Origin: Syncephalis plumigaleata
Taxonomy: Eukaryota > Zoopagomycota > Zoopagomycetes > Zoopagales > Piptocephalidaceae
NCBI GenBank assembly: GCA_025201365.1
Contig: JAIXMF010000001.1
Span: 992,001-1,056,000 of the forward strand
Length of the DNA stretch: 64,000 nucleotides
Reading direction: 5' to 3'
The notes under the pieces are model-generated. The model ran no database searches, was not told the DNA's origin, and saw nothing but the letters and a program-made list of their open reading frames with translations. How positions within the stretch are numbered: position 1 is the stretch's first letter; every line of letters starts with the position of its first letter. The translations under genes and the position numbers were made by a program. Positions 17,600 through 64,000 of the stretch are shown here, one piece after another.

Positions 17600-17606
17600 A
17601 ACGTTT
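17589..17606. repeat. LINE target-site duplication, left copy
   Basis: ATTTATCCTTTAACGTTT, repeated exactly at 21229-21246 right after the LINE's A-rich tail. The first A may belong to the tail, so the duplication is 17-18 bp. Confidence 0.92.
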
Positions 17607-20600
17607 TGAGATCGAGGATAGACCGGAGGAAGTACGCCAGCGGGTTCGAGATTACTTCATACAGTGGATGTCGATTAGAAACGGTACGGACCCAATGACA
17701 CACCCTAGGTGGAGAGACGCCTACGCGCCAATGCCGCACGTTCACGAAAGTATATACGACAACCTCATGGACCACGTGTCGGTGGAGGAGCTGGAGGCCA
17801 CGCTTCGTCAACTTCCCTCCGCTAAAGCGCCAGGAGAGTCGGGAGTCACAAACGAGATGTTGAAACAAGCCAGCAAGCGAATCCATAGAATCATGGCAGC
17901 TATGATAACGACGTGTTTACAACGCAGCGACATACCGCAAACTTGGAAACACGGAAAAATCATACCCATCCCGAAAGTGACAGACTGGTGTGGGGATATG
18001 GCGCAGCTGCGGCCAATCACCCTGCTAGAGACGATGCGCAAACTATTCTCGATATCCATGACGAAGCGCTTACAAAACATACTGGAGAAGAATCATGTAC
18101 TGCGAGGAGGGAACTTCGGCTTCACTAGGGGGAACCAAGCTACCGACTTTGTACAAATTCTGAGATCAGTGATGGATGATTCGATCTGCTACAAGAAAGG
18201 ACTAGAGGTGCTCATGCTGGACGTGAAACGAGCATATGACTCGGTCTCATGGCAAAGCCTAGCCTGCTCGCTACGAAGAATAAAAGTGCCGGAAGAGTTC
18301 ATAACTCTGCTAGAGAACATATTTAACAGCAGAACAGCTTCGGTTATTACAGCGCACGGTCAAACAGAAGCCCACCACCCTGAGTGCGGCTTGGACCAGG
18401 GAGAAGTGAACTCACCCACGTTATGGCTGATATTCTACGACACTCTACTCAGCAAACTCGATGAATCCAAAATAGGATACGCGATGAGAGAACGACAACC
18501 GGGCACTACACAGAAGATAGTAGCATATGGAGCCTTCGCAGATGACCTAACTCTAGTAGCAGAAGATCGTGACACCTTGCAAAAGCTGGCAGATATCTGT
18601 AGATCCTTCTTCGAACTACACGATATCGAGGTGAATTGCAACAAAACGATTCATACGGCGAAAGATCCTCTAGGCAACTCAGTAGCGGAATCACTACCGA
18701 AAATTCGATTGGCGGAAGGAGAAGCGGGACTGGTACAGACGGTGGCGCCACCGACAATACCTTTCCGACTACTCGGCTGCTGGCTGTCCTTGGACGGCAA
18801 GAGCAAAGAGCCACTCAGAATCATCCATCAATCAGTTAAAGGGCTTTGCAGCATTATAAGGCGAAAGGAGATCAGTCACGAGATTGCGATATATATCATC
18901 AACTCAGTGATAATACCGGCGATTACTCACAAAGCAGCTACCCTACCGCTGTCGGACTCACAGTGCGACGAGCTGGATAGAAGCTGGCTCACGCTAATCA
19001 AACGCAAAGCACACATGGCTAGGTCTATGCCAAACGTATTGCTATGGGCGCCGCAAGGATTCAATCTGACCAACGTTAGAGACGCTATGGACACTTCCCA
19101 AATAGCGGACTTAATGAGGAGGTTGGATAGCCCAGGTATGCTAGGTGAATCAGCGAGAGCACAAGAAGAAGCAGCATGCAGTCTTGTCAACAGCATCAGA
19201 TCGATATACAACAGTTACACGGAAACACGCGAAAGAAATAGAGTCTACGCTATTCACCTGGCATACCGACTGCATACGAGGGAGCTGAAGGTGGTACTAG
19301 GGGACGAACTCGAACAATCCAAGAGGATAGATGATATTCTGGTAGAAGACGCAGCGACTCCAACGACTCGAAGAGACGTTAGAGAAGCAGCGGAGAGGTT
19401 CGACCTAGTGGAGATGAAAGACATAGCACTGACTGACGGACTCGATACACCCAAGCTAGCGAGCTACAATGCCATCACAAATCGAAATGAAAGGCAGGGA
19501 GGCGCACCGAAATGGTACAAGAAGCTGGAAGAAAGGTGGCCCAAACTTGCATCTAAAGCCAAGAGTATGGCCATAGCAGCTAGACTGGCAGATCGAGAGG
19601 AGTACAGTACGCTGCTACCATTCACCGAGGAAAACCTAGCGGCGAGGTCCACAGACGCGCAAGGCAGGCAGTACAACTGGTCGGAGATCCAAGACAGCGA
19701 GACGGTGCTTATATGGACAGATGGATCAGTCACAAATCCAACTGGCCCAGACAAAGCAGGAGGCTACGCAGCGATAGTTATGAGAGGAAACGCGAAAGTG
19801 GCAGTAGCAACGGGAAGGTACGCAGGTCCACACTGTCACTCAGATATGCTCGAAGCTATGGCGATAGCTCACGCGATAGCATGCGCGCCAAACAGCATAG
19901 CAATCAAGATCATGACGGACTCTATGACCTCGGTGGCCTGGTGGAAGCAGTATGTCACGGAAGCGGTGCCCTGGTCCAGAGCGAAAAGAAGAGCAACGCC
20001 CACATACAAAATATGGGAGTTGATAGCAGATAGAGTCGCGAGACGAGAAGCAAGCACAGAAATAGAATGGACTAGGGCGCATATAGGCACAGTGGGAAAC
20101 GAGATGGCAGACATGGAGGCGAAAGCGGCAGCCGTCACAACAAATCAGGTGCCTAGATGGACACTGAATACAGTGCCAGGAAAGGTCCACCAGTACGATC
20201 TGCTGGCGTCAGGGCTGAACACATTGCTTCCACCACGACAACTGATCAAGAAACAAAGCAAGGCGCGACACGCAAGAACACTCAAGCAGCATATACTCAA
20301 GCACCACCCGTCGTTGAGGACCAGATTGGAGCAAGAGATGAACGTGGTAGCGCAAAGGGACAGAAGTGAAGATGAAAGAGCATTGAGAAGAGCGCAGCAC
20401 AAGAGGGAGTTCGCGATCAAACTAGCGACGGGTCAGTTACCTACCTTAGCTAGACAGCACCTATGGAGCAAGGAAAAATACACTACGGACGTATGCTGTA
20501 GGTGTAACAAAGGGGAAAGTGAAAATTGGAGGCATATAGTCAACTGTGACGTCAACGAGGGGGAAGTGGAAAGAAATGCGAAATTCGAAATATTCCAGGA

Positions 20601-21228
20601 AGGAATGAGGATTATAAGCAGAATCAACAGGGAAAGGGCGGAAAGGTCAATCCACCCTCGACTGGTGAAAGTGGCAGAAACAGCGCACAGAGCCACCCCA
20701 CTACATCCCCTCCACGATGTAGGCTACCTGCTGGGCTGGCCGAGTGAGGAGCTTCAACTAGACATGACGCAAAAGGGTCTAACAAAAGAAGAAAGAACAA
20801 GCGTCATACATCATATGTCAACGAAAGCGTTGGACATCGTATGGAGAAGAATATGGATCCCAAGATGCAAGCAGGTAAAGCGCATCATAGGCACCTGGAA
20901 ATCCATCAACCAGACCCCAGCGAACCCCCCAGGCCAACTGACTGGCCCCAGACCCAGCCAGAATGCGGATCGGCCGCATACTGGCTCCTCCCACTCCTCG
21001 CCGAGTGAACCTACTTCCTGGGACTCCATCAACAAGGCAGTATTCCGAACGGAGTATTACCTCAAGATGGTAGCCCCCTCGTGGAGCCTTTAGGGCCGGC
21101 CCACGTAAAGACGTGGCGGCCTAACTCGAATCATTTTTACACAATAATTTGAGAATGCAGTTAACTTTATTCATTTAATTATTAACAGCAGCGGCCCACT
21201 TGCTTTTAAAAATAAAAAATAAAAAAAA
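17607..21228 (+). mobile_element. 5'-truncated LINE (non-LTR retrotransposon) with RT and RNase H
   Basis: A 3.6 kb insertion bounded by an 18 bp target-site duplication and ending in a short 3' UTR and an A-rich tail (about 21207-21229). The open reading frame is already open at the first base after the duplication (17608), and no apurinic-type endonuclease domain is present, so the copy is 5'-truncated within ORF2, as is common for target-primed reverse transcription. It sits inside the TIR transposon. The sense strand is A/purine-rich and visibly richer in G+C than neighbouring host genes. Presence of RNase H after RT points to an I-supergroup-like element (fungal Tad-type elements share this layout). 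Precise clade not determined. Confidence 0.92.
17608..21093 (+). CDS. LINE ORF2 fragment: reverse transcriptase, RNase H, C-terminal zinc knuckle
   Basis: Uninterrupted frame to 21093; the first Met is at 17668 but the frame is open from the insertion junction, so that Met is probably internal. Domains in order (residues counted from the Met at 17668): RT palm and fingers with LRPITLLETMRKLFS (about 108-122), GFTRGNQATDFV, LMLDVKRAYDSVSW (first catalytic Asp, about 180-193), GLDQGEVNSPTLWL, and AYGAFADDLTL (the FADD box, about 285-295); RNase H with WTDGSVTNPTG, HSDMLEAMAIAHA and IMTDSMTS (catalytic Asp-Glu-Asp, about 683-755); then a CCRCNKGESENWRHIVNC zinc knuckle near residue 950. No stops or frame breaks, so this copy is young, although it lacks the endonuclease and cannot be full length. 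Confidence 0.93.
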   Translation, partial: EIEDRPEEVRQRVRDYFIQWMSIRNGTDPMTHPRWRDAYAPMPHVHESIYDNLMDHVSVEELEATLRQLPSAKAPGESGVTNEMLKQASKRIHRIMAAMITTCLQRSDIPQTWKHGKIIPIPKVTDWCGDMAQLRPITLLETMRKLFSISMTKRLQNILEKNHVLRGGNFGFTRGNQATDFVQILRSVMDDSICYKKGLEVLMLDVKRAYDSVSWQSLACSLRRIKVPEEFITLLENIFNSRTASVITAHGQTEAHHPECGLDQGEVNSPTLWLIFYDTLLSKLDESKIGYAMRERQPGTTQKIVAYGAFADDLTLVAEDRDTLQKLADICRSFFELHDIEVNCNKTIHTAKDPLGNSVAESLPKIRLAEGEAGLVQTVAPPTIPFRLLGCWLSLDGKSKEPLRIIHQSVKGLCSIIRRKEISHEIAIYIINSVIIPAITHKAATLPLSDSQCDELDRSWLTLIKRKAHMARSMPNVLLWAPQGFNLTNVRDAMDTSQIADLMRRLDSPGMLGESARAQEEAACSLVNSIRSIYNSYTETRERNRVYAIHLAYRLHTRELKVVLGDELEQSKRIDDILVEDAATPTTRRDVREAAERFDLVEMKDIALTDGLDTPKLASYNAITNRNERQGGAPKWYKKLEERWPKLASKAKSMAIAARLADREEYSTLLPFTEENLAARSTDAQGRQYNWSEIQDSETVLIWTDGSVTNPTGPDKAGGYAAIVMRGNAKVAVATGRYAGPHCHSDMLEAMAIAHAIACAPNSIAIKIMTDSMTSVAWWKQYVTEAVPWSRAKRRATPTYKIWELIADRVARREASTEIEWTRAHIGTVGNEMADMEAKAAAVTTNQVPRWTLNTVPGKVHQYDLLASGLNTLLPPRQLIKKQSKARHARTLKQHILKHHPSLRTRLEQEMNVVAQRDRSEDERALRRAQHKREFAIKLATGQLPTLARQHLWSKEKYTTDVCCRCNKGESENWRHIVNCDVNEGEVERNAKFEIFQEGMRIISRINRERAERSIHPRLVKVAETAHRATPLHPLHDVGYLLGWPSEELQLDMTQKGLTKEERTSVIHHMSTKALDIVWRRIWIPRCKQVKRIIGTWKSINQTPANPPGQLTGPRPSQNADRPHTGSSHSSPSEPTSWDSINKAVFRTEYYLKMVAPSWSL

Positions 21229-26929: not shown

Positions 26930-28771
26930 ATTAATTTATAGCGGAAGGAATATTAGTATAATATGATGATGATATTGGTTGGTTATATAAAACCAAAAAA
27001 AAAGAAAGCAATTGTTTGCTTGTGCTAATATCGACTAATAAACACAAGTGTCGAGACGACAAAAAGTGCTTCTGAAATTATAGATATAGAATGAGATGCT
27101 TAATGCCAGTAGAGTGGTATAACAAGGAAAGAGGTCACAACTCATTCAGATCGAAATGGACAAATTTGTTATTTTGAGCAACGTAGATGGGTTCAAGATT
27201 GTCGAGTGGGATAAGGTTGATCAACAACAACAACGATATCGTCAACTATAACAATAATAGCAGCAGCAGCAGCAGCAAGATAACAGCGTAACGTCAAGTC
27301 ATGTGGACTCCTTTGGATTTATATCGACAATACCGGTTTGCTAAATACCACACGAACTGCTACTCCGCATGATACATCGTTGAACCAACTTGACGGATAA
27401 CCGGCAGTCCATACTCCCTACCTCGCATGTTTCATCAATCGCCGCATACTGCAAGTAAGTGTAGTAGTGGAAGGAGGAACGAGAAAGGCAAAACCGTATG
27501 CCAAATGAGGTCGAATGACAATTCTTTCCATCTTCTTCAAGGCACAACCAGTTTATACCAAGCGATAGGTATCCATTGCTGATTGTGGTGTATCAAGTTT
27601 GCCTTTAGTCCATTACACTCATTCTCTCTCTCTCTCTCTCTTACTCTCTTTTATCTATACTTTTTACGTGTGCGGCATTATAATTCCGCTAAATATAGCT
27701 GTAACAGATCGATTGTTGTATAAGCTAGCTTTGCTATTTATTCATCATTCGCCTTTCTCGTTTCTTGCATTGTTTAACTTGCTAAACGATGGTATAATTA
27801 TAGCATAACAAGATAAATAACGCGATCGCAATCATTTTAGTATATCTATTAAATGGATTCCACCAGTTGATTATGGACAATGATAACAATGATAATGATA
27901 TTGTCATGCTACGACACGTATGAAGCAATGATGTACACACAAACAAGCTAAAACACTGGCTTTCCTTGTTATTCCTCCTCCTCACAAGTATTTTACCACC
28001 AAGTGTATTATGAACCTTTTATTGCTTATTGGATTAGTAAACAGAAATGAATAAATAAGAATTGCTTGATCATTATCATACGATGGACAAGTACAACACA
28101 GACAATAAGCATGTAGAATTGATCTCGAGTGTAACAACAGCTGACAACAATAGTAGAATGCCTGATATCCATTAATATTCATGTTATATATCATATAAAT
28201 CATTTGATTCCATGATTGGGGCTAAAAGTTGACTTATCCCCGTGTTGTTTGCGTGAATTTGCAAACTGCGCGTCTCTTCTTTTTTCCACATTCCAACTTA
28301 CGTCACAGTCAGGAATGTGACGCTAGTTTCGTTTTCTTCATTCGAACGTACTAGTCGTATATTGTTATCAATTCCGAAAATGTTATCTCCCTACGGTAGG
28401 TATTTAGTATGGCGTTAGCGTGTTTTTTCATGCTTACTACTTGCTACTTCATTGCTGGCATTCTATTCGTCTCATTCTTCTTTGCTATTTGTCACTAAGC
28501 AAACAACGCGTGAACCTATGACCTGCAGACTGCATAACAATACCGTTATTGATAGTTATGCATCCGTCCATTTAGACAGTAGGTGTCGTCAACGCTTTCT
28601 TTGTCCTTGTTCCTGCTCTTCCACTTTACACTTTTATATACTTGTCCATTTTACAAGGGACTTTATTATCAACTGCTACTTGATATTCCACTATTATTGC
28701 CTCGCCAGCTCTTCTTTTCGTTCTTTCATTTGTTAGTCTACACTTTAACGAGAGTATACCCTGTCATATTC
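26930..28771. other. Intergenic region without a clear gene (1.8 kb)
   Basis: Between two divergent genes. AT-rich; contains a (CAG)n run near 27255-27276, a (CT)n run near 27622-27641, and C/T-rich sequence on the plus strand from about 28400 to 28760 just before the RBR gene. A 31-codon frame at 27157-27252 ending in a Gln run is not supported by anything else. I see no RNA gene. Confidence 0.4.
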
Positions 28772-31389
28772 ATGCTGCCAAGTTTATCCCTAAATGGTAT
28801 ATTGATCCAGCTACTAATCATCCAAAGAAAGCAATAAATACTATGTTTTCGGGCGGGGTTTCTTTCATTAAATGATGACATTTGAATACGCAACTAATAC
28901 TATCAAATCGTGTCTATAGATTGTTCGGAGATAGAGGCGCTATCCCTCAATGAAAGTCGTAGTGGTAGCAACTTTGTTTGTGTTATCTGTTCCGAGGAAT
29001 TATCCACGATTGCAACATCCGGTCCCAATACGACTGTCACTTCAAGCGAAGCTGATTATACAGGAGCATCGGATTCCACATTAATAGGTCAAACGCTCTA
29101 CTGTGGTCATGCCTATTGCCGTCCGTGTTTATCTACATTTCTGAAATTCAGACTACTCGAATTTAGCAATCCATTTCCGCTCTACTGTGCGCAACCAGGC
29201 TGTCCATACGAGATTAACGATTATGACGCGGAACCCGTGCTAACAAGTAAATCCTATGCCAAATGGGAAAAAAGAAAAGCAGAGAGAGATATGAGAAACA
29301 AGGTAACAACAATAGCTGTGATGGTTATCTATTAAGTATAGCATGATTATGAAATTGTGAATGGAATACTAACGTGTAATCAAGATTTATTGCCCTAACA
29401 AACGATGTAGCGCATTACTAGACGTCGCACACGTTAAAGATAACGAGAATGCCGTAATTGTTTGTCATCAGTGTTTACACGTTGCTTGCGTTCAATGTCG
29501 AGTACCATGGCATAATGGTAAGTAATACACGCTAACAATAATGGCAACAGCAATACTAACATTGTATTTACACAAATAGGCTATGCATGTCATGAATACA
29601 ATGTACTTCCCCCTGATGTACGTAACAACGAGGATGAAGAAGTATTTCGAATGGCCAGGCAGTATCAATGGGCCCGGTGTATTAATTGTCGGACACTCGT
29701 CGAGTTATACGAAGGCAGCAATCACATCACATGTCAATGTGGCACTCAGTTGTACGTAATCGTTAGCGTGCAGTAGATGTCAATAGAATCATCGTACTAA
29801 CCATTTATTACTAATTGACCCTTTCTTGTTGATATAGCTGCTACCAATGCAATGGTCCATGGAATGAACTTACCCGACAGTGTACACGTCATCAATGCTC
29901 ATTATGGAGCAAGGAAATGCTCGAATTGGAGGAGCAACGTCGCAATACCAATACTGCTAATACTCAACCACCCGATGATAATCTCAGTATGTTTTCTAAT
30001 CAGCGACGGTTATCGCTCTCTAGCACGACTAGTTCCAATTGGTTTATTCATACGAGCTACCACCGTGGTCTACCCGAGCTGAATCCACCCAAGAACACCA
30101 CGGAACCTGTCGCATCTACGAGCACCTTTACAACTTCTACCGCCACAACAGCAGCAGCCGACATTCTGCCAATTACTCCACCTAGTGTGATCAATGCTAC
30201 TACTAGTGCTAGTAATAGTAGCTCAACTCCTCCATCAGAGCCTGTTACTTACCAGTGTCCAAAATGCTTCAAGAAATTCCTTAGCGAACACGCTCTGGGC
30301 GTTCATACTCGTACCACCAGAGATCATGATAATTTTGAACCTAATGGTAAGCAACCTCAAAGCAAAGCAACACTCACTTGTTGCTCGCGTATATTCGACA
30401 ATGAGCATAATCTATGGTTACATCAACAAAGTATACGCTGTTTCACTTCAGTTGCCAAATCTAATGCTCGCTCCACATACCCAACCAGTACGGCACAAGC
30501 CAATAATCAGTCCATTAATCTAACCAACATGATTAATGGTCCCAAGCGGAATCTACCCGAATGGGCTCGTGGTTACATTATAAACAATATATGCTGCTAT
30601 TGCAATGTGAAATTCAATTCTCGTGATAATTTGCAATCGCATCTACGTAATACGACCGAGCATGGTGTATACTATTGTTGCGATCGTTTATACACTAGTC
30701 AAATTGCATTCGATCAACATCGACTTTTAGGCGGTCTATGCAAGCTTACTCCAATAGCACATTCAGCATCATCAGCAACCACAACTGTTTCACCATTAGC
30801 CCTACCTTTACCTCGTAATGGCTTACGTGATCTAGGCGTTAATCTTGCTATTATCGCTGCTGAGGGACCAGCATCCGGTAATGCCGCCACTATCTACACG
30901 AATATACGAAATAGAAAGTGTTACGACTGTAGTCGTTCATTTCCATCATTATCCGCGCTGGATAATCATCTACGTAATTGTGTACACGATGTATTCGCTT
31001 GTTGCGGTCGACTATTCGTCAATCATCAAAGTATTGCCGAGCATCGAGCTGGCTCAAACTGCAGACGTACCATTGGTAACAAGCCATCGTCATCACCATC
31101 ATCTTCTTCATCATCTAGACCATCCGTCGTACAACCTGCACGTAAATTGAATGTACAACTGGAAGTGTCGACCTCCCTTGAAATGCTCTACAAAGTACTG
31201 GGCGATATCAGTCTATACCGAGCCATCTCCTCTCTAAATTGCTGCTATTGCAATAGGAAATTCAATACTACCGATGAATTGATGGTTCATCTTGTTAATA
31301 CATCATTACACGAGGTGCATCAATGTTGTACCATTCTATTCAAAGATGCGAATAGTCTAGGGAAACACAAGCGAATACATCATTCATAG
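28772..31389 (+). CDS. RBR-type E3 ubiquitin ligase fused to four paired zinc-finger units
   Basis: A proposed 25 bp first exon (MLPSLSLN, ending 28796) joins in phase to an exon at 28920. RING1: CVICSEEL...YCGHAYCRPCLSTF...CAQPGC. IBR: YCPNKRCSALL...VCHQCLHVACVQCRVPWHNGYAC. RING2: CINCRTLVELYEGSNHITC, QCGTQFCYQCNGPW (the FC is rebuilt across an intron). RBR ligases take ubiquitin from E2 onto a RING2 cysteine in the GCNH motif; here that position is Ser (GSNH). A Ser/Thr-rich linker follows, then four units of about 50 residues, each a C2H2 finger (C-x2-C-x12-H-x5-6-H) followed by CC-x12-H-x3-6-C/H, beginning near YQCPKCFKKF, CCYCNVKF, CYDCSRSF and CCYCNRKF. The C-terminal 490 codons are one exon. 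No frame breaks. Confidence 0.88.
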
Positions 31390-31928: not shown

Positions 31929-33590
31929 CTAGGCACGCACGTCAATCTTCAATAATGCACGCAAATTACTGCTATACATTTCATTGATGAGCATCTTATC
32001 ACCTGCTGATGGACCGTGATTGGAAGCGGTCGCTTGCCATTCAGATCTAACAGCTGCTGCTGGTGATGGCGATGCTTGATGACGATAAGATTCTACGTTA
32101 AATGTTGTATTATCAGCGAATGATTGTTGAACTAATGACGAAGATGACGAAGAGATGACCTGCTGTTGCGACTGACCAACATAGAACGGATCACATGTGT
32201 AGGTTGAGTTGTTAACAGGGAATGGTACGGCATGAGACGGAAGGGACAGATGAGGTGTAGTTGTTGTAGTTGGTGGATACGAAGTGGATACTGAATGATG
32301 TTGATATTGTTGATGATAGGGATGATTAATACTACTGCCATTACTATTGCTAGTAGTAGAAGTAGTAGTCGTATGACTGCCACGTAACATATCCAGTAGT
32401 TCACGTGAACGCATACGTAATTCATCGGCACTATCATATTGAGAAGTGGCGGTAGTAGTATGATGGTGATGATGATGATGATGATGCTCGTTGCTATTAA
32501 CTGGCAACATCATATCAATATTGGATACTACTCGTGTAGGTGAAGGAGGAGCACTATAACCCATTGGATACTGATGTAGGGATGTGGTAGACGATGCGGG
32601 TGATAGAGATGGTAACTGTTGACCATTACCATGAAGGCTGTTCTGACTGTTTGAACCAGTATTGCCATTGCCACTACCAAGTAGAATATCAGGCATGGGT
32701 AGACGTGATGCAGCAGGTGAATTACTAAAGGTGGGTCCAGCATACGCATGATCGCGTGTAGGACGACTAGGTGGTGAACCTGCAGCAGCAGCAACCGGTG
32801 AAGAGGATCGACCAGGTAATGTCTGCTTATTATTAATAAGCATGACAGGTGTTTGCTGGCCACTAGTGGTAGACGATGATGGCAACGATGACGACGAAGC
32901 ATTCTGGTGATGATGTTGTAGAATGGTTATAGGACCGGCTGATTGTTGCTTAGAAGCCGAGGATGGTGTTACAGCCGCTGGAGAGCGACGTGATTTACGC
33001 TGAGGAGTTGCAGGTGCGGCACCATTGTTGTTGTTGTTGTTGGATGCACGCGATGCATTGGACGATTGTTTGTTACGCGATTGTTGCTTAGAATTGGAAG
33101 TAGCGTTGTTGTTGTTGTTCTTTGCGTGGTTAACCGAGGCATTCTGAGCTGCATTGACGGCAGCGGTTAGCTTGCTCTTTACTTTCTCGGATACATCGGT
33201 GGCTACATTATTATTATTGGCGGTAGATTCAGTGGCTGCCTTCTTGTCAGCACGAGGACGTGTGCGTTTAACACGATCAGTCGAGGTTGCATTATCTTTG
33301 GCTGGACTGTTGCCACCATTCTTGTTACCATTACGAGATCCCTTGTTGGTTGTCGTTGCGGTAACGGATGAATCAGTGGCAGATGACGCAGTGTGATGTT
33401 GCTTCTTCTTGGATATCGACTGTGTGGCAGTAGTGTCAGCGGAGGAGCCTTTGTTTGAATCTGACGATTTCGATTTGCGTTGACCATTATTAGAGAAGGA
33501 CTTGGTCGTCGTTGCCGTTGACGATGGTGATGATGTGGCAGCGGATGGCTTCATCACTGTGGTGGAGGATGACGATGTACGAGGTGGCAT
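31929..33590 (-). CDS. Ser/Thr/Asn-rich low-complexity protein, function unknown
   Basis: Single-exon frame of 553 codons starting MPPRTSSSSTTVMKPSAA. It is dominated by Ser, Thr, Asn, Ala and Gln with basic patches (RVKRTRPRADKK, PQRKSRRSPAA) that could be nuclear signals, a His run near residue 380, and no zinc finger or other fold that I recognise. Two short segments look ordered: SADELRMRSRELLDMLRG and, at the very end, MLINEMYSSNLRALLKIDVRA, both helical and leucine-spaced. The composition and the long leader resemble fungal transcriptional or signalling regulators, but this is only an impression. Coding is supported by the uninterrupted length and by in-phase codon repeats. Confidence 0.6.
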   Translation of the reverse strand: MPPRTSSSSTTVMKPSAATSSPSSTATTTKSFSNNGQRKSKSSDSNKGSSADTTATQSISKKKQHHTASSATDSSVTATTTNKGSRNGNKNGGNSPAKDNATSTDRVKRTRPRADKKAATESTANNNNVATDVSEKVKSKLTAAVNAAQNASVNHAKNNNNNATSNSKQQSRNKQSSNASRASNNNNNNGAAPATPQRKSRRSPAAVTPSSASKQQSAGPITILQHHHQNASSSSLPSSSTTSGQQTPVMLINNKQTLPGRSSSPVAAAAGSPPSRPTRDHAYAGPTFSNSPAASRLPMPDILLGSGNGNTGSNSQNSLHGNGQQLPSLSPASSTTSLHQYPMGYSAPPSPTRVVSNIDMMLPVNSNEHHHHHHHHHTTTATSQYDSADELRMRSRELLDMLRGSHTTTTSTTSNSNGSSINHPYHQQYQHHSVSTSYPPTTTTTPHLSLPSHAVPFPVNNSTYTCDPFYVGQSQQQVISSSSSSLVQQSFADNTTFNVESYRHQASPSPAAAVRSEWQATASNHGPSAGDKMLINEMYSSNLRALLKIDVRA

Positions 33591-36580
33591 GATGATAATG
33601 GTGCAGATCGTATTAGAAAGTACAAATGGTAGCAGCCAAATTCAACAATTACAGAGTACCGAGAATCCAGATAATAGTAAGAATAATAAGAGTGATAAGA
33701 ATGACGATCGATTACGCAAAACTACTAGACGACAACAAAATTGAATAAGAAGTAGCAGAGGAAAAGGAATAATCAGAAAATACTACAAACAGACGGAGAA
33801 CACGTACAAGCAGCAGTAGCAGTAGTACAACAACACAGGACACACACACACACAAAGTGATCAAAGGAAAAAACTATAATAAAAGCGGAAAGCAAATGGT
33901 AATGATGCTAGAAGGCACGACGCGGCGAATAACGACAACTCGGTGGAAAAAGATATACGAGTAGTCGTGATGCTATAAAGGAGGAATAGGAGTGTGCGGT
34001 GCCAATGCAAAATATTTGGATATCAATTTATATATAGGAGATGAGGGATGATGTGTGTGCGTGTGTGTAAGTAGTAGTAGTAGTAGTAGTAATGATGGAT
34101 GTCGATGTATGCTGCTTGATGATAAAGCAATGTCAATATCGTTGTTGTTGATTGGTCCGTGAATCAAAGAGATGAATAACGTCAAAGTAAATGATAGATA
34201 CGGATATCGTGGTGGTGGTGGTGGTTGTCGTAGTATAATGATAATAATACTAGTGTAATAGAAGGAATGATGGTAGTTGTCGTCGTTGTCCTAATTGTCT
34301 TAACAATAAAAGGACAATAGTGTATAATCAAATCAAATTGAATTGATCTTGGATAGAAATATCAAATAGTGAAAAGGAAAGCGCAACCAGGCGTGGTATT
34401 ATATCAATGCGGAATGGAATCAAACAGAGTGATGCTACAGCTGCTGCTATGTGATTATCCGTGATAAATCCACGTCGTCGTAATAATAAAAGTAGCAAAG
34501 AACAAATAGAAAGAACGAGACTTGCTTGGTAAACAAGTGCGAAATTGTTAATCTGTTTAGAGCAGGAAGGACACGCACACAAACAAGTAAGCTATTGAAT
34601 TCGTCAGCGGATGTGGACAGAAGGCGATCGTTATGAAGGCGTTGAGATACCAGCACAGCGGGCGATAATAGGCTTGAATATGCGCAAAAACAAAGAGGAA
34701 GAAAAAGTAATGAAGCGTATATGCTGCGAGCAAAGAGACGTATAGTCACAATGAGTTCGTCGTGAATGCCAAAAAAACGATGATATTAGGCGTTAACGAG
34801 TACTACTAATAGGGTGATAATATGCTATACTATGTACACAGCAAAACGGATAAGAGAGAGGAGAGAGAGATATGAACAAGCCTTTCTCGTAGTGATATAT
34901 AGAAATATAACAACGAGAACAATACACGGCAAGTCAATAGGGAGGAGGAGAGAGAGAGAAGAGAAAAGCGATGCTTAACAGTGATGAAAGCAATCAAATA
35001 AGCAAATAAGCAAATAAGCAAATAAGCAGGTAGACAGGTAGCTAAAAGGTATACGTAGCTAGGCCACCGGCAGATCACACGGATCGATAATAAACGTGTA
35101 ATAGTAGCAGGAGTAGATGGTGTTGATGATGAGTCGGCAATCAATAGAAGCCAATCAAGCAAATCAGATGAATGGTTGGTTACTAACTAACAAAAGTACT
35201 AATAATACACAATCGGATCCTTGGAGGGGGGAGGAGTAGGTGTGTACGTGTATATATAAATATTAGTACTCTATCAGAATGAAGAAAGCCTAGGCGACGA
35301 CGACAACGACACACACACAAACACCACGGACCAAGCCGGGAGTACAAGTAGTGGTATGATAGATAGGTTGGTTGGTTGGTTGCTCGCTTGTTCAGAGCAG
35401 TGTTCCAACGAAAAGGATGAATGTATGCACACACACAAATGCTGTTTACTAATTGAATAGACTATAGCAGTTTGTGTATATGAATACTGTAGCAGTAGCA
35501 GTAAGTAATACTAATACTAATCACACGATACAGCAATAATATAACTGTAATATAGTTGTCGTAGGGAGGTGAATAGGGAAAGAAAAGGAGAATACACTTG
35601 GGTGTTCGAGATACACACAGAGAGATCCAGATGATAAAGTGAAAGAGTGAGAGAAAAGTAAACGACGACTAATCACAGAAAGAAAAAAGTGTAATTGCTG
35701 TTTGGGTGGATGCGTTCTTGCAAGGGATAGAGTGAGCGTAGTATTTGTTGTAGTTGTAGTTGTAGTTGTAATAGTGATCACCCGTTTTCTATGAGTGTAT
35801 GCTAATATCACGTGCACAAAGAAAAGGTGAGTAATTGTGTGGTTGTAGTGAGCCAGAAAAGAAAACGATGGCAATAACGAAAAGTGAACGCACGACGCAC
35901 AAAACAAGGCAAACGAATAACGTAGAGAGTAGAGAGAGTAGAGAGTGAGCGTAGGTTACGTACGAACGTATATGTGTGTGTGTTAGTGTGTTTAGTTGCT
36001 GAAAAGGAGAAAGGAGGCACAACAATATAGTAGTAGTAGTAGGTAGGTAGGTAAGTAGAGTAGTAATAGTAGTAGTAAATAGTATGAAAAGAAGGATGTT
36101 CCTAGTAAGCAATCATAGAAATGAATATAGGAGAGAGAAGAGAGAAAGGAATCCACACTAAAGTAAAAAATATGAGTGAGTGTGCGTATAAAAACGTACG
36201 AGGAAAGAAAAATAGAAAGGAGAAGAGGAGGAGGAGGAGGAAACCAAAGGCGGGTGTGTGAGTGTGCATGTGTCTCGGGTAGAAATAGCAGTATCAAAAA
36301 TGGGTCAAACAATACACATACAACATGAATATGGAAAAAGGGGTGCCTGCCTTGCCTATCTCGACCATTTATTGGCGGGGAAAGAGGACCGATGGGAGTC
36401 AAACGAGCAAGCAAGCAAGAAAGAGAAAGACAAAAACTCAAGCGGATAAGCCAATGGGTAGAACCATGCGACTCGACTGCTGTCGCTTCTATTATTATTA
36501 TTATTACAGCAATACACCTGACTTACGTGTATGTTCCTTATGCCTAAATGGGTGTATATAGACACACAAAGTAAGAGTGA
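33591..36580 (-). promoter_or_regulatory. 3 kb pyrimidine-rich (minus strand) leader or promoter
   Basis: No convincing gene on either strand. The minus strand is C/T-rich throughout with CA, CTA, TTG and CTT simple repeats, making many long Ser/Leu/Phe/Tyr open frames that have no conserved content. Its orientation matches the gene at 31929-33590, so I read it as that gene's upstream region, possibly with a long 5' UTR. Confidence 0.45.
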
Positions 36581-59872: not shown

Positions 59873-62800
59873 ATGGTGACAAAGCATGAAGCAAAGAAGC
59901 GACAAGCGAGTGAAGTCGCAGAGGCAGTAGCTCGTCCAAGCAAGAAGCAAGCTGCCAATAAGAAGAGCAAGAAGACCGAGAATGATACACCAACAGCTAC
60001 CAGTACTACTACCAGTACTGCTACAACTCAAGACTTTCCTCGTGGTGGTGGTACGGGTATGACGCCTATTGAATATCGTAATGTTATTAAACAAGCCGAT
60101 CGTGATTTATTTGGTGAAGTAAGTAGTATGACATTGTATATTACTATGTTAATAATAATACTAACAATGACTCAAGAATCCAACATCATCGAATGGTAAT
60201 GCCGTAAAGACGAAGCAAAGCAAATCGAAAACACTCACGGATGAAGAGTATAAGGAACGGAAACGACAACAGCGTGAACGTCGTAATGTTAAGAAGCATA
60301 AACAAACATCGACAACAACGTCAAACAAGACGGAGGCCACGGATAATGACACTGATGACTATAGTGGACCAGTTCATGCTAGTGGATTAACATTCAAGGT
60401 GAATATAATAGTAAAGTATTAGAAATGACATAAAATACTAATGACTGTTATCATTATCATTATAGCGACTGGCTATTGGTACACTCTTATTAGGCATGAT
60501 TAGTAAAATTAGCGATCTTTATTTAACCATTGCCCTACCTAACAATCTAACGGGTCGAGTGACTATTACGGAAATATCTTCTGAGATTACTCGTCGTGCT
60601 GAAGCAGCAGCATTAGAAGACGATGACGACGAAGATGAAGAGATCAACAATGATGTTAATGATGATACTATGGATATTGATTCTGGAGTAGCAGCAACAT
60701 CATCTCGTGGTCTACCCGATTTACGATCAATGTTCCATGTAGGCCAATGGGTTCGTTGTGCCGTAGTTGGCTTAGAATCTGGTGATGATTCAAGCAATGA
60801 TCATCATTCATCTACTACTACTGCTGCTGCTGCTGCTAATGCAACAAAGAAACCTCGTAAACGTATCGATCTAAGTCTTCGAGTGGATCAAGTAAATTCC
60901 GGACTAGCCTCACTCGATCTAATCTCTGGATTCACGCTATCCGCCACTGTAACCAGCCTCGAAGATCATGGCTATTTACTGGATATTGGCATGAGTGATC
61001 GTACCGCATTTTTACCGCGTAAAGAGGCACAAGCCTACGAGACTCAATGGCATGGTGGTCGTGCATTGCAAGCAGGTCAACCGATCGTTGTTACCGTCAT
61101 GGACTCATCAAAGAACAAGTCGCTCTCCAATCGAGTGATTCAAGTCACCGCTGATCCACAACGAGTTAAGCAGGCATCGATTAATGACGCGTTATCGAAT
61201 GTGCAATCATTGTTGCCGGGCGAATTGGTTACCGCACGTATTACACGTATCCTATCCAATGGACTGGCATGTCGTGTATTGGAGTTCTTTGATGCCACCA
61301 TTGATGTAACGCATATTCCTAGTACGGCCATGATGAGGCAATCAAGTGAGCATGATCTACGTCAACAATTCAAAGTAGGAGATAAGGTAAGCTAGCTTAA
61401 TAGTAATAGTAATAGTAATGGTAGTAATAGTAATAGTAATAACACAAACTACTTGATGATTAGATTACTGCACGTATTCTATACGTATCACTCTCGCTTG
61501 CTCATAAATCGATTGCACTTACCCTACTACCTCATGCATTGGCATTACAACGTCCAGATTCTATGACCGCTGACAATGCAAGCACGACAACGACATTGGG
61601 ACCGGATTATGGTACAATTATCGATAAGGCTGTCGTGCGTAAAGTTGAGAACGGCATGGGTCTATGGTGTACTATGGATAGTATACCAGATCTATTAGGA
61701 TTCGTTCATGTACGTAATACTAGTAATATATACATAGACAAATACTAACTATTCACAATTATATTAGATCTCACGAGTATCCGATAAGCATATTCAAAAC
61801 TTGAACACTAGTGCTTGGTCACCCAACACCGTGCATCGTGCACGCGTTGTAGGCTTTGATCCAGTGGATAATGTGGTGCAACTATCGCTGCAGGAATCAG
61901 TACTCGCGTGTCCCTATCTACGCATCGATGATTTACCATTAGGTGGCAAGATTAAAGTAACAGTCAAGAAACTCACCGCTCATGGCATGGTAGTTGATAT
62001 TACCGATACACCATTAACCGGTTTCGTGCCATCTATTCATCTGGCCGATGTTGCTCTATTGAAACCCGAGAAGAAGTTCAAGTATGGTGATCATTTGGCG
62101 GCACGCGTGTTATCCATCAATCCCGCTGAACATAAAGTGTTACTCACCTTGAAACGAAGCCTAGTCCACTCGGATCTACCTATTCTAACGCAGTATTCCG
62201 ATGCCGTAGTAGGCGAGTTCGTTCATGGCTTTGTCATTACCGTGAAGCCATTCGGTTGTATGATCGGTTTCTATAATTCACTTCGTGCCGTGTGTCCTCT
62301 AAGAGAATTAAGGTAAGCACTGACTGTACATCATTATAACAAGTAGCACTTACTCATTACTATTGTTGTTAGTGAGACTACCATAGAGAATCCACAGCAA
62401 CACTTTCATATAGGTCAACCGGTACGTTGTCGTATATTATCGGTGGATTCTGCACGTGAACGTATGCGAGTCAGTCTTCGTACACATGTGTCGAGCTTCA
62501 ATCCTGAACAATGGGCGGCCATTCAAGTGGGTCAACTAGTTAAAGGAAAGGTCGTGGAACGAACAGCCGAGGTCATTTGGCTATCCATCGTGGACTCTAA
62601 TATACGTGCCGCACTCCCTATTACCCATCTATCGGATCATACTACTAGCGCGTATTTGCAACGACTTTTGAATACATTCAATGTAGATCAAGTCATTGAT
62701 GATCTAGTAGTCATTGCTAAGCAAGAGTCACGCGGTCATCTACTAGTGTCGCATAAGCCACTATTGGTAACAGCGGCAAAACAAGCAACCCCAACTACCT

Positions 62801-64000
62801 ATGCCTTTGACACGATTCAAGAGGGTGACATTATTCCAGGCTATATTAGCAATATTGCAGATCATAGCGTGTTCGTCAATCTACTCGGTGGACAAAGTGC
62901 ACGCGTTGCCAAATCGCAACTATCTGATCAGTTTGTCGCGTCGATCGCCGATCATTTCACCATTCAACAATCGATCCTGGGTATGGTGACCCGTGTGGAC
63001 AAGGAGCTACAGCGTATTGAGCTATCATTAAAACGATCGGTTGTTCAGCCTGGCCTCGAGCAAAGCAATCTATTTATTGAATCTTACTTTGCGGCACTTG
63101 CATCTCAAGCAGCGGTAGATCAAGGACCTATTGGCACGATTCAACCGGGTCAATGGATTGACGGCACTATTGAGCAGCAGCAACCATTTGGCTGGATTGT
63201 TCAATTGGAACACGGTCTCTCTGGATTTATTACCCTAGATCAATGCAAGGAGGTTAGCCATCAAGTGAATGATAAAATACGTGCACGTATACTTGATATC
63301 GATTACGATCGTAAGATTGTCGATTTATCCTTGAGACCGGCACTTGTTAACGCTTCCAACACGGATGAGACTAGCAAGTCGAAACGGAAGAAGGGTAAAT
63401 CAAAATCGACCACCACCACCACCTCAGCATCTAGCTCGATCGTCATGAAGGAACAGTTAGCCATTATTGAGCTGGTCAAAGAGGACTACTTGGTGGTGTC
63501 ATTACCGCAATCTCAACATTGTATTGCATTTGCCGCTACCAAGACCTACAATCAGCGTGATAAACCATTTATGCGCTACAAAGTAGGACAACAATTGACG
63601 GTGCAACCCAGTGAGGCTAGCATCTCTTCATCATCGTCTTTGAATACTAGAATACTAGTAGTGATTGCATCATCCACTACATCAAATGAGAATATCAATG
63701 CAAACAACACTGTTCATTTGGCTACTATTGGCGGTGTTGACCTAGGCAGTCGACAGATTCAAGCACCATTGGATGAATCGCTCAAGACCATGGAGGATAT
63801 ACAACCAGGTCGTCAAACGACAGCACGTATTCTAGCCGTGAAGGATTTACAGATTAACGTGCGATTAGCCGATAATCTAAAGGGCCGTGTTCATGTAACG
63901 GAACTATTCAATCGCTACGAAGACATTCAGATCCAAATCAGCCATTGGCCAACTTTAAGATCAGTACTCTACTGGAGAAGTTGACAGTCATCGGTTGGCA
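59873..64000 (+). CDS. RRP5: RRP5-like S1-domain ribosome biogenesis protein (3' end beyond window)
   Basis: Rrp5 binds pre-rRNA and is needed for both 40S and 60S assembly. Exons 59873-60118, 60177-60398, 60466-61386, 61464-61709, 61768-62312 and 62373 onward are phase-consistent. A basic Lys-rich N-terminus leads to tandem S1 RNA-binding repeats, for example GTLLLGMISKISDLYLTIALPNNLTGRV, GFTLSATVTSLEDHGYLLDIG, GELVTARITRILSNGLACRV, VVGEFVHGFVITVKPFGCMIG, GDIIPGYISNIADHSVFVNLL, GQWIDGTIEQQQPFGWIVQL and ILAVKDLQINVRLADNLKGRV. The long acidic run in the first repeat insert (DDDDEDEE) is also seen in family members. A single-base frame break near 63935 interrupts the last repeat visible; the reading resumes NQPLANFKI. 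The C-terminal TPR-like half of the protein lies beyond the window. Confidence 0.9.

What the first reader, a model, noticed from the sequence alone, without database searches (positions are those of the whole stretch)
30240..31389. Four tandem bipartite zinc-finger units fused to an RBR ubiquitin ligase
Downstream of RING1-IBR-RING2 the same protein carries four units of about 50 residues. Each has a classical finger (C-x2-C-x12-H-x5-6-H) followed by a second, unusual finger with adjacent cysteines (CC-x12-H-x3-6-C, or H in the last). The spacing between CC and the following His is 12 residues in all four units (SRIFDNEHNLWL, DRLYTSQIAFDQ, GRLFVNHQSIAE, TILFKDANSLGK). Seen directly; that RBR proteins do not usually carry such an array is from general knowledge. 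The array may be a substrate- or nucleic-acid-binding module.
Basis: partly seen in the sequence, partly recalled or inferred. Interest (0 to 1): 0.75.

Follow-up and report, generated by a model that had tools for sequence, protein, structure and literature searches.

The report
Inactive-looking ubiquitin ligase with zinc-finger tail
A fungus carries a gene family in which a ubiquitin-ligase core is joined to a tail of paired zinc fingers, one finger of each pair with two neighbouring cysteines; this member lacks the cysteine that such ligases use, so it may work as a regulator rather than an enzyme.

Summary
Window 28380-31389 (+) encodes one protein: RING1-IBR-RING2, then four two-finger units, C-x2-C-x12-H-x5/6-H followed by CC-x12-H-x3-6-[C/H]. 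The RING2 end and all fingers share one open exon. The genome is Syncephalis plumigaleata; its public model starts inside the RBR and calls an intron at 30347-30488 that removes most fingers. Exon 5 differs from a second genomic copy by 25 synonymous and 7 non-synonymous changes, which supports the full reading. Two outside relatives with the array were found. Most likely the array binds the target, and this member is a ligase-dead scaffold or competitor of active paralogues. Target type, zinc binding and activity are untested. New variant of a known kind.

The parts
28380..28395 (+). exon 1 (tentative, 16 nt with the ATG; GT donor)
   Evidence: the same 16 nt occur in the second copy C182; no in-frame ATG in exon 2 before MRNK
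28920..29302 (+). exon 2; RING1 at 28979-29203
   Evidence: (zf-C3HC4 21.0 bits, equal to its cut-off)
29385..29517 (+). exon 3; most of the IBR
   Evidence: IBR 49.3 bits, cut-off 24.3
29580..29751 (+). exon 4; end of the IBR and first part of RING2
29717..29719 (+). Ser224 codon (AGC) at the RING2 catalytic-cysteine position
29838..31389 (+). exon 5; end of RING2 (to 29898), Ser/Thr-rich linker, four finger units, stop
30256..30441 (+). unit 1 (13 extra residues between its fingers)
30347..30488 (+). stretch that the public model BDF22DRAFT_16144 skips as an intron (placed by me from its sequence); contains the CC finger of unit 1; here read as coding
30508..30591 (+). lead segment of unit 2
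30592..30741 (+). unit 2: C2H2 finger + CC finger
30820..30918 (+). lead segment of unit 3
30919..31062 (+). unit 3
31144..31239 (+). lead segment of unit 4
31240..31383 (+). unit 4 (last ligand His)

Best explanation
The gene is one member of an RBR subfamily seen here only in Syncephalis and one metagenome fragment. An RBR core is followed by a C-terminal array of compact two-finger units that I take to be the target-binding part. In this member the core can probably still dock an E2~ubiquitin through RING1 but cannot form the RING2 thioester, because the catalytic cysteine is serine. It most likely acts without ligase activity, as a scaffold or as a competitor that holds targets or E2~ubiquitin away from its cysteine-bearing paralogues. 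Shown by sequence: the architecture, the shared exon, the serine in two species and in both copies, the conserved metal-ligand pattern. Inferred: loss of activity (from tests of the same change in another RBR ligase). Conjecture: target binding by the array and the competitor role.
For: One protein: exon 5 joins RING2 and fingers; same order in P0001 and in the paralogues, where introns 2-4 of the window gene have counterparts at matching places. Coding: 25 synonymous and 7 non-synonymous differences to the second copy over exon 5, pN/pS 0.09; 16 and 5 from the skipped stretch to the end. Missing cysteine: Ser224 aligns with the Cys of the RNF216 chain 7m4m and with the Cys of 'ggcnhm' in ARIH1; in an 18-row alignment 16 have Cys and only window and P0001 have Ser; these two form a group with 95/95 support. 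Cys-to-Ser at this place abolished ligase activity of the RBR ligase NKLAM while leaving a ligase-independent effect (PMC12148440, abstract and passages). Array as the variable part: mean identity among nine or ten paralogue copies is 93-98% in RBR parts, against 60-68% in lead 2, lead 3 and unit 3 and 78% in unit 2 (unit 1: 88%, lead 1: 92%, eight copies), while 199 of 200 ligand cells are kept.
Against: No activity, binding or expression data. RING1 might still work with an E2 that transfers ubiquitin directly. pN/pS across exon 5 is 0.09 between the two copies, so the window gene itself is under strong constraint and shows no diversification. The dN/dS of unit 3 (0.96; codon bootstrap 0.54-1.58) fits relaxation as well as diversification. 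A serine oxyester intermediate cannot be excluded.
Confidence: 0.5

Rival explanations
1. The window protein is still an active E3: RING1 alone, or a Ser224 oxyester route, transfers ubiquitin to targets that the array holds.
For: RING1 and IBR ligands look complete; strong constraint over exon 5; the serine is found in two species.
Against: The catalytic Cys is absent at a position where 16 of 18 aligned RBR sequences have it; Cys-to-Ser removed activity in NKLAM.
Confidence: 0.2
2. The array is a nucleic-acid-binding module (DNA or dsRNA), and the family ubiquitinates or tethers proteins at those nucleic acids. (This may hold together with the best explanation.)
For: Profile matches to DNA-binding C2H2 pairs (Aart, PRDM9, Zif268); zf-C2H2 31.2 bits (cut-off 25.2) and zf-C2H2_jaz 24.4 bits (cut-off 22.6) in window units 2-4; by eye the next finger's first Cys lies 11-12 residues after the first finger's first His in units 2-4, as in the linked pair of Aart (12; alignment). 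With all 12 finger positions compared, change in units 2 and 3 is slightly higher at contact positions (p 0.048).
Against: No TGEKP linker; variation at -1,-4,-5,-7,-8 is not above that at other positions once the core positions -3 and -9 are left out (p 0.25 for units 2 and 3, 0.34 for all units); the structure model is of moderate confidence and finds no strong match.
Confidence: 0.35
3. The public model is right: the gene ends after the first finger of unit 1 and the downstream fingers are a relic or a separate gene.
For: BDF22DRAFT_16144 ends ..FEPN-VRHKPIISPLI, which a GT..AG intron 30347-30488 would give; that stretch alone gives only weak evidence of constraint (4 synonymous, 3 non-synonymous, P 0.05).
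Against: Open frame through all units; 16 synonymous versus 5 non-synonymous changes from there to the end, P 1e-6; a CC-x12-H-x5-C finger lies inside the supposed intron; no separate downstream protein was returned by a search that allowed such lengths; paralogues carry RBR and array together.
Confidence: 0.07
4. The CC fingers do not bind zinc as C2HC fingers; the vicinal cysteines serve as a redox or structural pair.
For: Two adjacent cysteines on one zinc is an unusual geometry (recalled); no structure could be measured.
Against: His at x12 and the final Cys are kept along with both cysteines: 199 of 200 ligand cells over paralogue units; AlphaFold places CC at the turn of a beta-beta-alpha finger, with moderate confidence.
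Confidence: 0.15

Closest known systems
RBR E3 ubiquitin ligases (ARIH1, RNF216, parkin, HOIP, HOIL-1, NKLAM)
   Same: RING1-IBR-RING2 order and zinc ligands; best solved relatives by sequence RNF216 (2.6e-9) and ARIH1 (5.4e-8)
   Different: Catalytic Cys is Ser; C-terminal finger array. The zinc-binding domains that a 2014 review describes for parkin, HOIP and HOIL-1 (NZF and ZnF) lie N-terminal of the RBR (PMC3940038, passages)
Syncephalis fuscata BDF19DRAFT_454526 (P0001)
   Same: RBR with Ser at the catalytic place, then CC-type finger units; 47.5% identical in the RBR
   Different: Two units in the deposited model, the first without its C-x2-C (degraded or mis-annotated)
Tandem C2H2 zinc fingers (Zif268, PRDM9, KRAB zinc-finger type)
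   Same: Finger pairs with comparable spacing; first finger a regular C-x2-C-x12-H
   Different: Second finger has C-x0-C and mostly ends in Cys; no TGEKP; H-x5/6-H
zf-C2H2_jaz / zf-met (dsRNA-binding fingers)
   Same: H-x5-H type spacing (recalled for that class); jaz profile cut-off passed by the window array
   Different: Paired units with a CC finger and a helical-looking lead

Membership tests
RBR E3 ubiquitin ligase | RING1, IBR and RING2 zinc-ligand pattern in order | tested here: met
   IBR 49.3 bits over cut-off 24.3; zf-C3HC4 21.0, equal to its cut-off; IBR_1 over RING2 23.7, below its cut-off of 27; alignment to RNF216 and ARIH1
RBR E3 ubiquitin ligase | catalytic cysteine in RING2 | tested here: not met
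   Ser224 in window; Ser also in the second copy (EGSNHITC) and in P0001; Cys in 16 of 18 aligned RBR sequences
RBR E3 ubiquitin ligase | ubiquitin transfer through a thioester | not testable with these tools
   needs an in vitro assay
C2H2 zinc finger (first finger of each unit) | C-x2-C-x12-H-x3-6-H and profile score | tested here: met
   four of four window units fit; zf-C2H2 31.2 bits over 25.2 for window units 2-4. On the full protein no C2H2 family reached its cut-off
C2H2/C2HC zinc finger (second finger) | two knuckle cysteines two to four residues apart | tested here: not met
   cysteines adjacent in four of four window units, and in all 33 units found by a pattern that itself asks for CC
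C2H2/C2HC zinc finger (second finger) | beta-beta-alpha fold | tested here: inconclusive
   strands 54-56 and 59-61 and helix 64-73 in the unit 2 model, mean pLDDT 67.6; PDB matches weak
C2H2/C2HC zinc finger (second finger) | zinc binding | not testable with these tools
   the model carries no zinc and no coordinates were available
DNA-targeting finger arrays under diversification (KRAB-ZNF, PRDM9 type) | excess change at DNA-contact positions | tested here: not met
   without core positions p 0.25 (units 2, 3) and 0.34 (all units); with them 0.048 and 0.11; pN/pS 0.93 at contacts and 0.92 elsewhere in units 2 and 3
zf-C2H2_jaz (dsRNA-binding finger) | profile over gathering score | tested here: met
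   24.4 over 22.6 bits for the window array; six of six rows match at E up to 0.5; RNA binding not tested

The most novel reading that the evidence does not exclude
A mycoparasitic fungus has built its own ubiquitin targeting system: a birth-and-death family of RBR ligases with fast-changing arrays of a previously undescribed CC zinc-finger type, governed by a conserved ligase-dead member that carries its own array.
Probability: 0.2. Interest if true: 0.75.

Novelty: new variant of a known kind. Interest (0 to 1): 0.5.

Why it matters
RBR ligases are a small, medically important enzyme family whose mechanism rests on one RING2 cysteine. A family in which the catalytic core stays nearly constant while a zinc-finger tail changes, beside a member without the cysteine that is kept in two species, would be a natural system for asking how RBR ligases gain targets and what a ligase-dead RBR does. 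The CC finger would be a clear test of whether a C2H2 finger tolerates loss of its knuckle residues. The public gene model hides most of this.

Tried and rejected
Diversification aimed at DNA contacts: a first grouping of positions that included -6 gave p 0.0002 for units 2 and 3, and -1,-4,-5,-7 alone 0.011, against all other non-ligand positions. With the five contact positions named in PMC12264921 (abstract), compared within the 12-residue finger segment, p was 0.048, and 0.25 with the core positions left out. I dropped the claim.

Wider distribution: three protein searches gave P0001 and P0007 as the only proteins with the array outside this genome, and P0008, the public model of this gene; one search also listed five plant and ascomycete RBR proteins (P0002-P0006). 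Other Zoopagales genomes were not searched as genomes. One viral-contig scan gave no relative. Rfam gave no match at gathering scores in the window.

Literature: no print on an RBR with such fingers was seen in the listings; one search returned none. One search gave one paper naming S. plumigaleata, PMC7865070, where the only mention is as a genome used for binning. PMC8778642 was searched for terms: IBR and Syncephalis do not occur in its main text.

Rows dropped: L011 (near-copy of L010) was left out; only the L010-L011 pair was left out. Paralogues lacking a segment drop out there (unit 1 and lead 1 absent in L014, L015; RING1 absent in L013), and L014 and L015 also from lead 2. L048, an RBR-like gene with a degraded RING2, was left out, and L044 as the second copy of L043. 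P0002 was in neither alignment; P0004 and P0006 were only. P0007 and the second copy C182 are not among the 33 units. In some searches the text read as P0001 also held P0002-P0006; the one unit counted (residue 454) lies inside P0001, and one search used P0001 alone. Of the nine rows prepared six went into the alignment.

Full report
WHAT IS THERE. The stretch 29833-31389 is open in one frame and encodes the end of RING2, a Ser/Thr-rich linker and four finger units. Joining it to upstream exons with GT-AG introns gives exons 28380-28395, 28920-29302, 29385-29517, 29580-29751 and 29838-31389 and a protein of 751 residues. Exon 1 is tentative: it is 16 nt long and rests on splice signals and its presence in a second copy. 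Pfam gives IBR at 5e-13, C3HC4 RING at its cut-off, and C2H2 matches below their cut-offs on the full protein, with no family covering the RBR-array combination.

IDENTITY OF THE GENOME. A public protein, Syncephalis plumigaleata BDF22DRAFT_16144 (P0008, 286 aa), comes from a contig of 3,046,566 bases, the length of contig C1 that holds the window, and matches the window gene. Syncephalis belongs to the Zoopagales; that it is a mycoparasite is recalled. The public protein starts at MRNKIYCP, within exon 2, and ends FEPN-VRHKPIISPLI, which fits an intron at 30347-30488 that removes the CC finger of unit 1 and shifts the frame (placed by me).

IS THE FULL READING RIGHT? A second copy on a 19.8 kb contig (C182) is 98% identical in DNA. 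Over exon 5 the two differ by 25 synonymous and 7 non-synonymous changes (pN/pS 0.09; P 2e-10 against no constraint), and by 16 and 5 from the skipped stretch to the end (P 1e-6). The skipped stretch alone has 4 and 3, weak evidence (P 0.05). The finger stretches of units 2, 3 and 4 together show 5 synonymous and 0 non-synonymous changes. No separately annotated downstream protein was returned by a search that allowed such lengths. I conclude that RBR and array are one protein. Transcript data are missing.

THE UNIT. A pattern scan found 33 complete units: 4 in the window, 1 in P0001 and 28 in paralogues. Of 37 CC pairs in these arrays 34 have His exactly 12 residues on; the other 3 are CCYC knuckles of first fingers. 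The first finger is C-x2-C-x12-H-x5/6-H, the second CC-x12-H then mostly x5-C. A lead segment of about 28-33 residues precedes the fingers in most units (by eye). In a profile alignment to the designed DNA-binding array Aart, CC stands against C-P-E-C, that is, the two residues inside the knuckle are missing. The unit 2 model has two beta-beta-alpha fingers with CC at the hairpin turn (mean pLDDT 67.6; 51 of 81 residues at 70-90, none at 90 or more), which supports but does not prove the fold. Among paralogue units 199 of 200 ligand cells are kept, both cysteines of CC in every one, although synonymous changes occur at these ligand codons.

THE CATALYTIC SITE. The RING2 reads C-x2-C-x9-S-N-H-I-T-C. 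Ser224 aligns with the Cys of RNF216 and ARIH1 chains of solved structures; that these are the catalytic cysteines (C688 and C357) is recalled. In an alignment of 18 RBR sequences 16 have Cys, and only the window and P0001 have Ser. The window and P0001 group together with 95/95 support. The ten paralogues lie on one side of a branch when only labelled rows are counted, but unlabelled rows may lie among them; the tree has 10 open forks of 17, long branches and no secure root. In NKLAM the same change abolished ligase activity but kept a ligase-independent effect (PMC12148440, abstract and passages). The window protein is therefore probably not an active RBR ligase.

THE FAMILY. The genome holds ten further RBR-plus-array copies on C3, C13, C68, C162, C246, C257 and four places on C340; such counts are lower bounds. 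Some are probably second copies of one locus, such as C68/C162. Their introns match introns 2-4 of the window gene. Four of ten look disrupted: L013 in RING1; L014 and L015 without unit 1 and with stops before units 2-3; L016 by a frame break between units 2 and 3. An unrecognised intron could explain some of these. Five other RBR or RBR-like genes (L043/L044, L045, L046, L047, L048) show no such array among the open frames listed around them (frames of 40 or more residues with four or more cysteines), and two array searches of the genome hit only the window gene, its second copy and the ten paralogues.

CHANGE ALONG THE PROTEIN. Over 27-44 paralogue pairs per segment, mean identity is 96% in RING1 and IBR, 98% and 93% in the two RING2 parts, 92% in lead 1, 88% in unit 1, 63% in lead 2, 78% in unit 2, 60% in lead 3 and 68% in unit 3. 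With RING1, IBR, the two RING2 parts and then the array segments in the same order, dN/dS is 0.29, 0.20, 0.08, 0.33, 0.46, 0.34, 1.09, 0.39, 0.60 and 0.96. The bootstrap for unit 3 is 0.54-1.58 and for lead 2 is 0.52-2.11, so positive selection is not shown. Synonymous difference is also higher in the array (pS 0.16-0.30 from unit 1 on) than in the RBR (0.06-0.09), which points to gene conversion of the 5' part or exchange of arrays. The pairs are not independent. Change is not focused on DNA-contact positions once core positions are left out.

MECHANISM. Most likely the array is the part that finds the target and the RBR the part that acts on it. In Cys-bearing paralogues that would be an ordinary RBR transfer. 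In the window member I expect a ligase-dead scaffold or competitor (about 0.5). Protein versus nucleic-acid target is open.

NOVELTY. Outside this genome I found only P0001 and a metagenome fragment, P0007, with units 2-4 at 65% identity. RBR proteins with other zinc fingers are known: zinc-binding domains N-terminal of the RBR in parkin, HOIP and HOIL-1 (PMC3940038, passages). I therefore rate this a new variant of a known kind, with the CC finger and the ligase-dead member shared by two species as its most interesting points.

Noticed in passing
window 17602-21093 (+): Long open frame with reverse transcriptase (RVT_1) and RNase H domains, probably a LINE-like retroelement.
   Followed up: partly
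G000 contigs C1/C182, C68/C162, C318/C368, C138/C223, C112/C108, C112/C252: Several RBR genes occur twice, once on a longer and once on a shorter contig with mostly near-equal scores, as if the assembly kept second haplotypes.
   Followed up: no
L013, L015, L016, L019 (beside paralogues on C340, C257, C13, C246): Recurring open frame reading VRELTPDDCYLILATDGVWDGMSSQEVATF or nearly so, PP2C-phosphatase-like by eye, next to several paralogues; suggests duplicated segments.
   Followed up: no
L014 and L015: Unit 1 is replaced by a long acidic repeat (EEQAYEEAIEEAIEAY...) between RBR and the later units.
   Followed up: no
L048 (G000:C112:775500-780500): Another RBR-like gene whose RING2 looks degraded around the catalytic site (DRSSTNCLC).
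   Followed up: no
window 31929-33641 (-): Open frame of 570 codons, rich in Ser, Asn and Thr, with a PNRC motif over its Pfam cut-off, convergent with the finger gene.
   Followed up: no
window 60466-63984 (+): Two open frames with S1 and RRP5-type domains, an Rrp5-like gene.
   Followed up: no
paralogue RBR segments versus arrays: Synonymous difference is about 2-5 times lower in the RBR part than in the array from unit 1 on, unexplained; gene conversion is a guess.
   Followed up: partly
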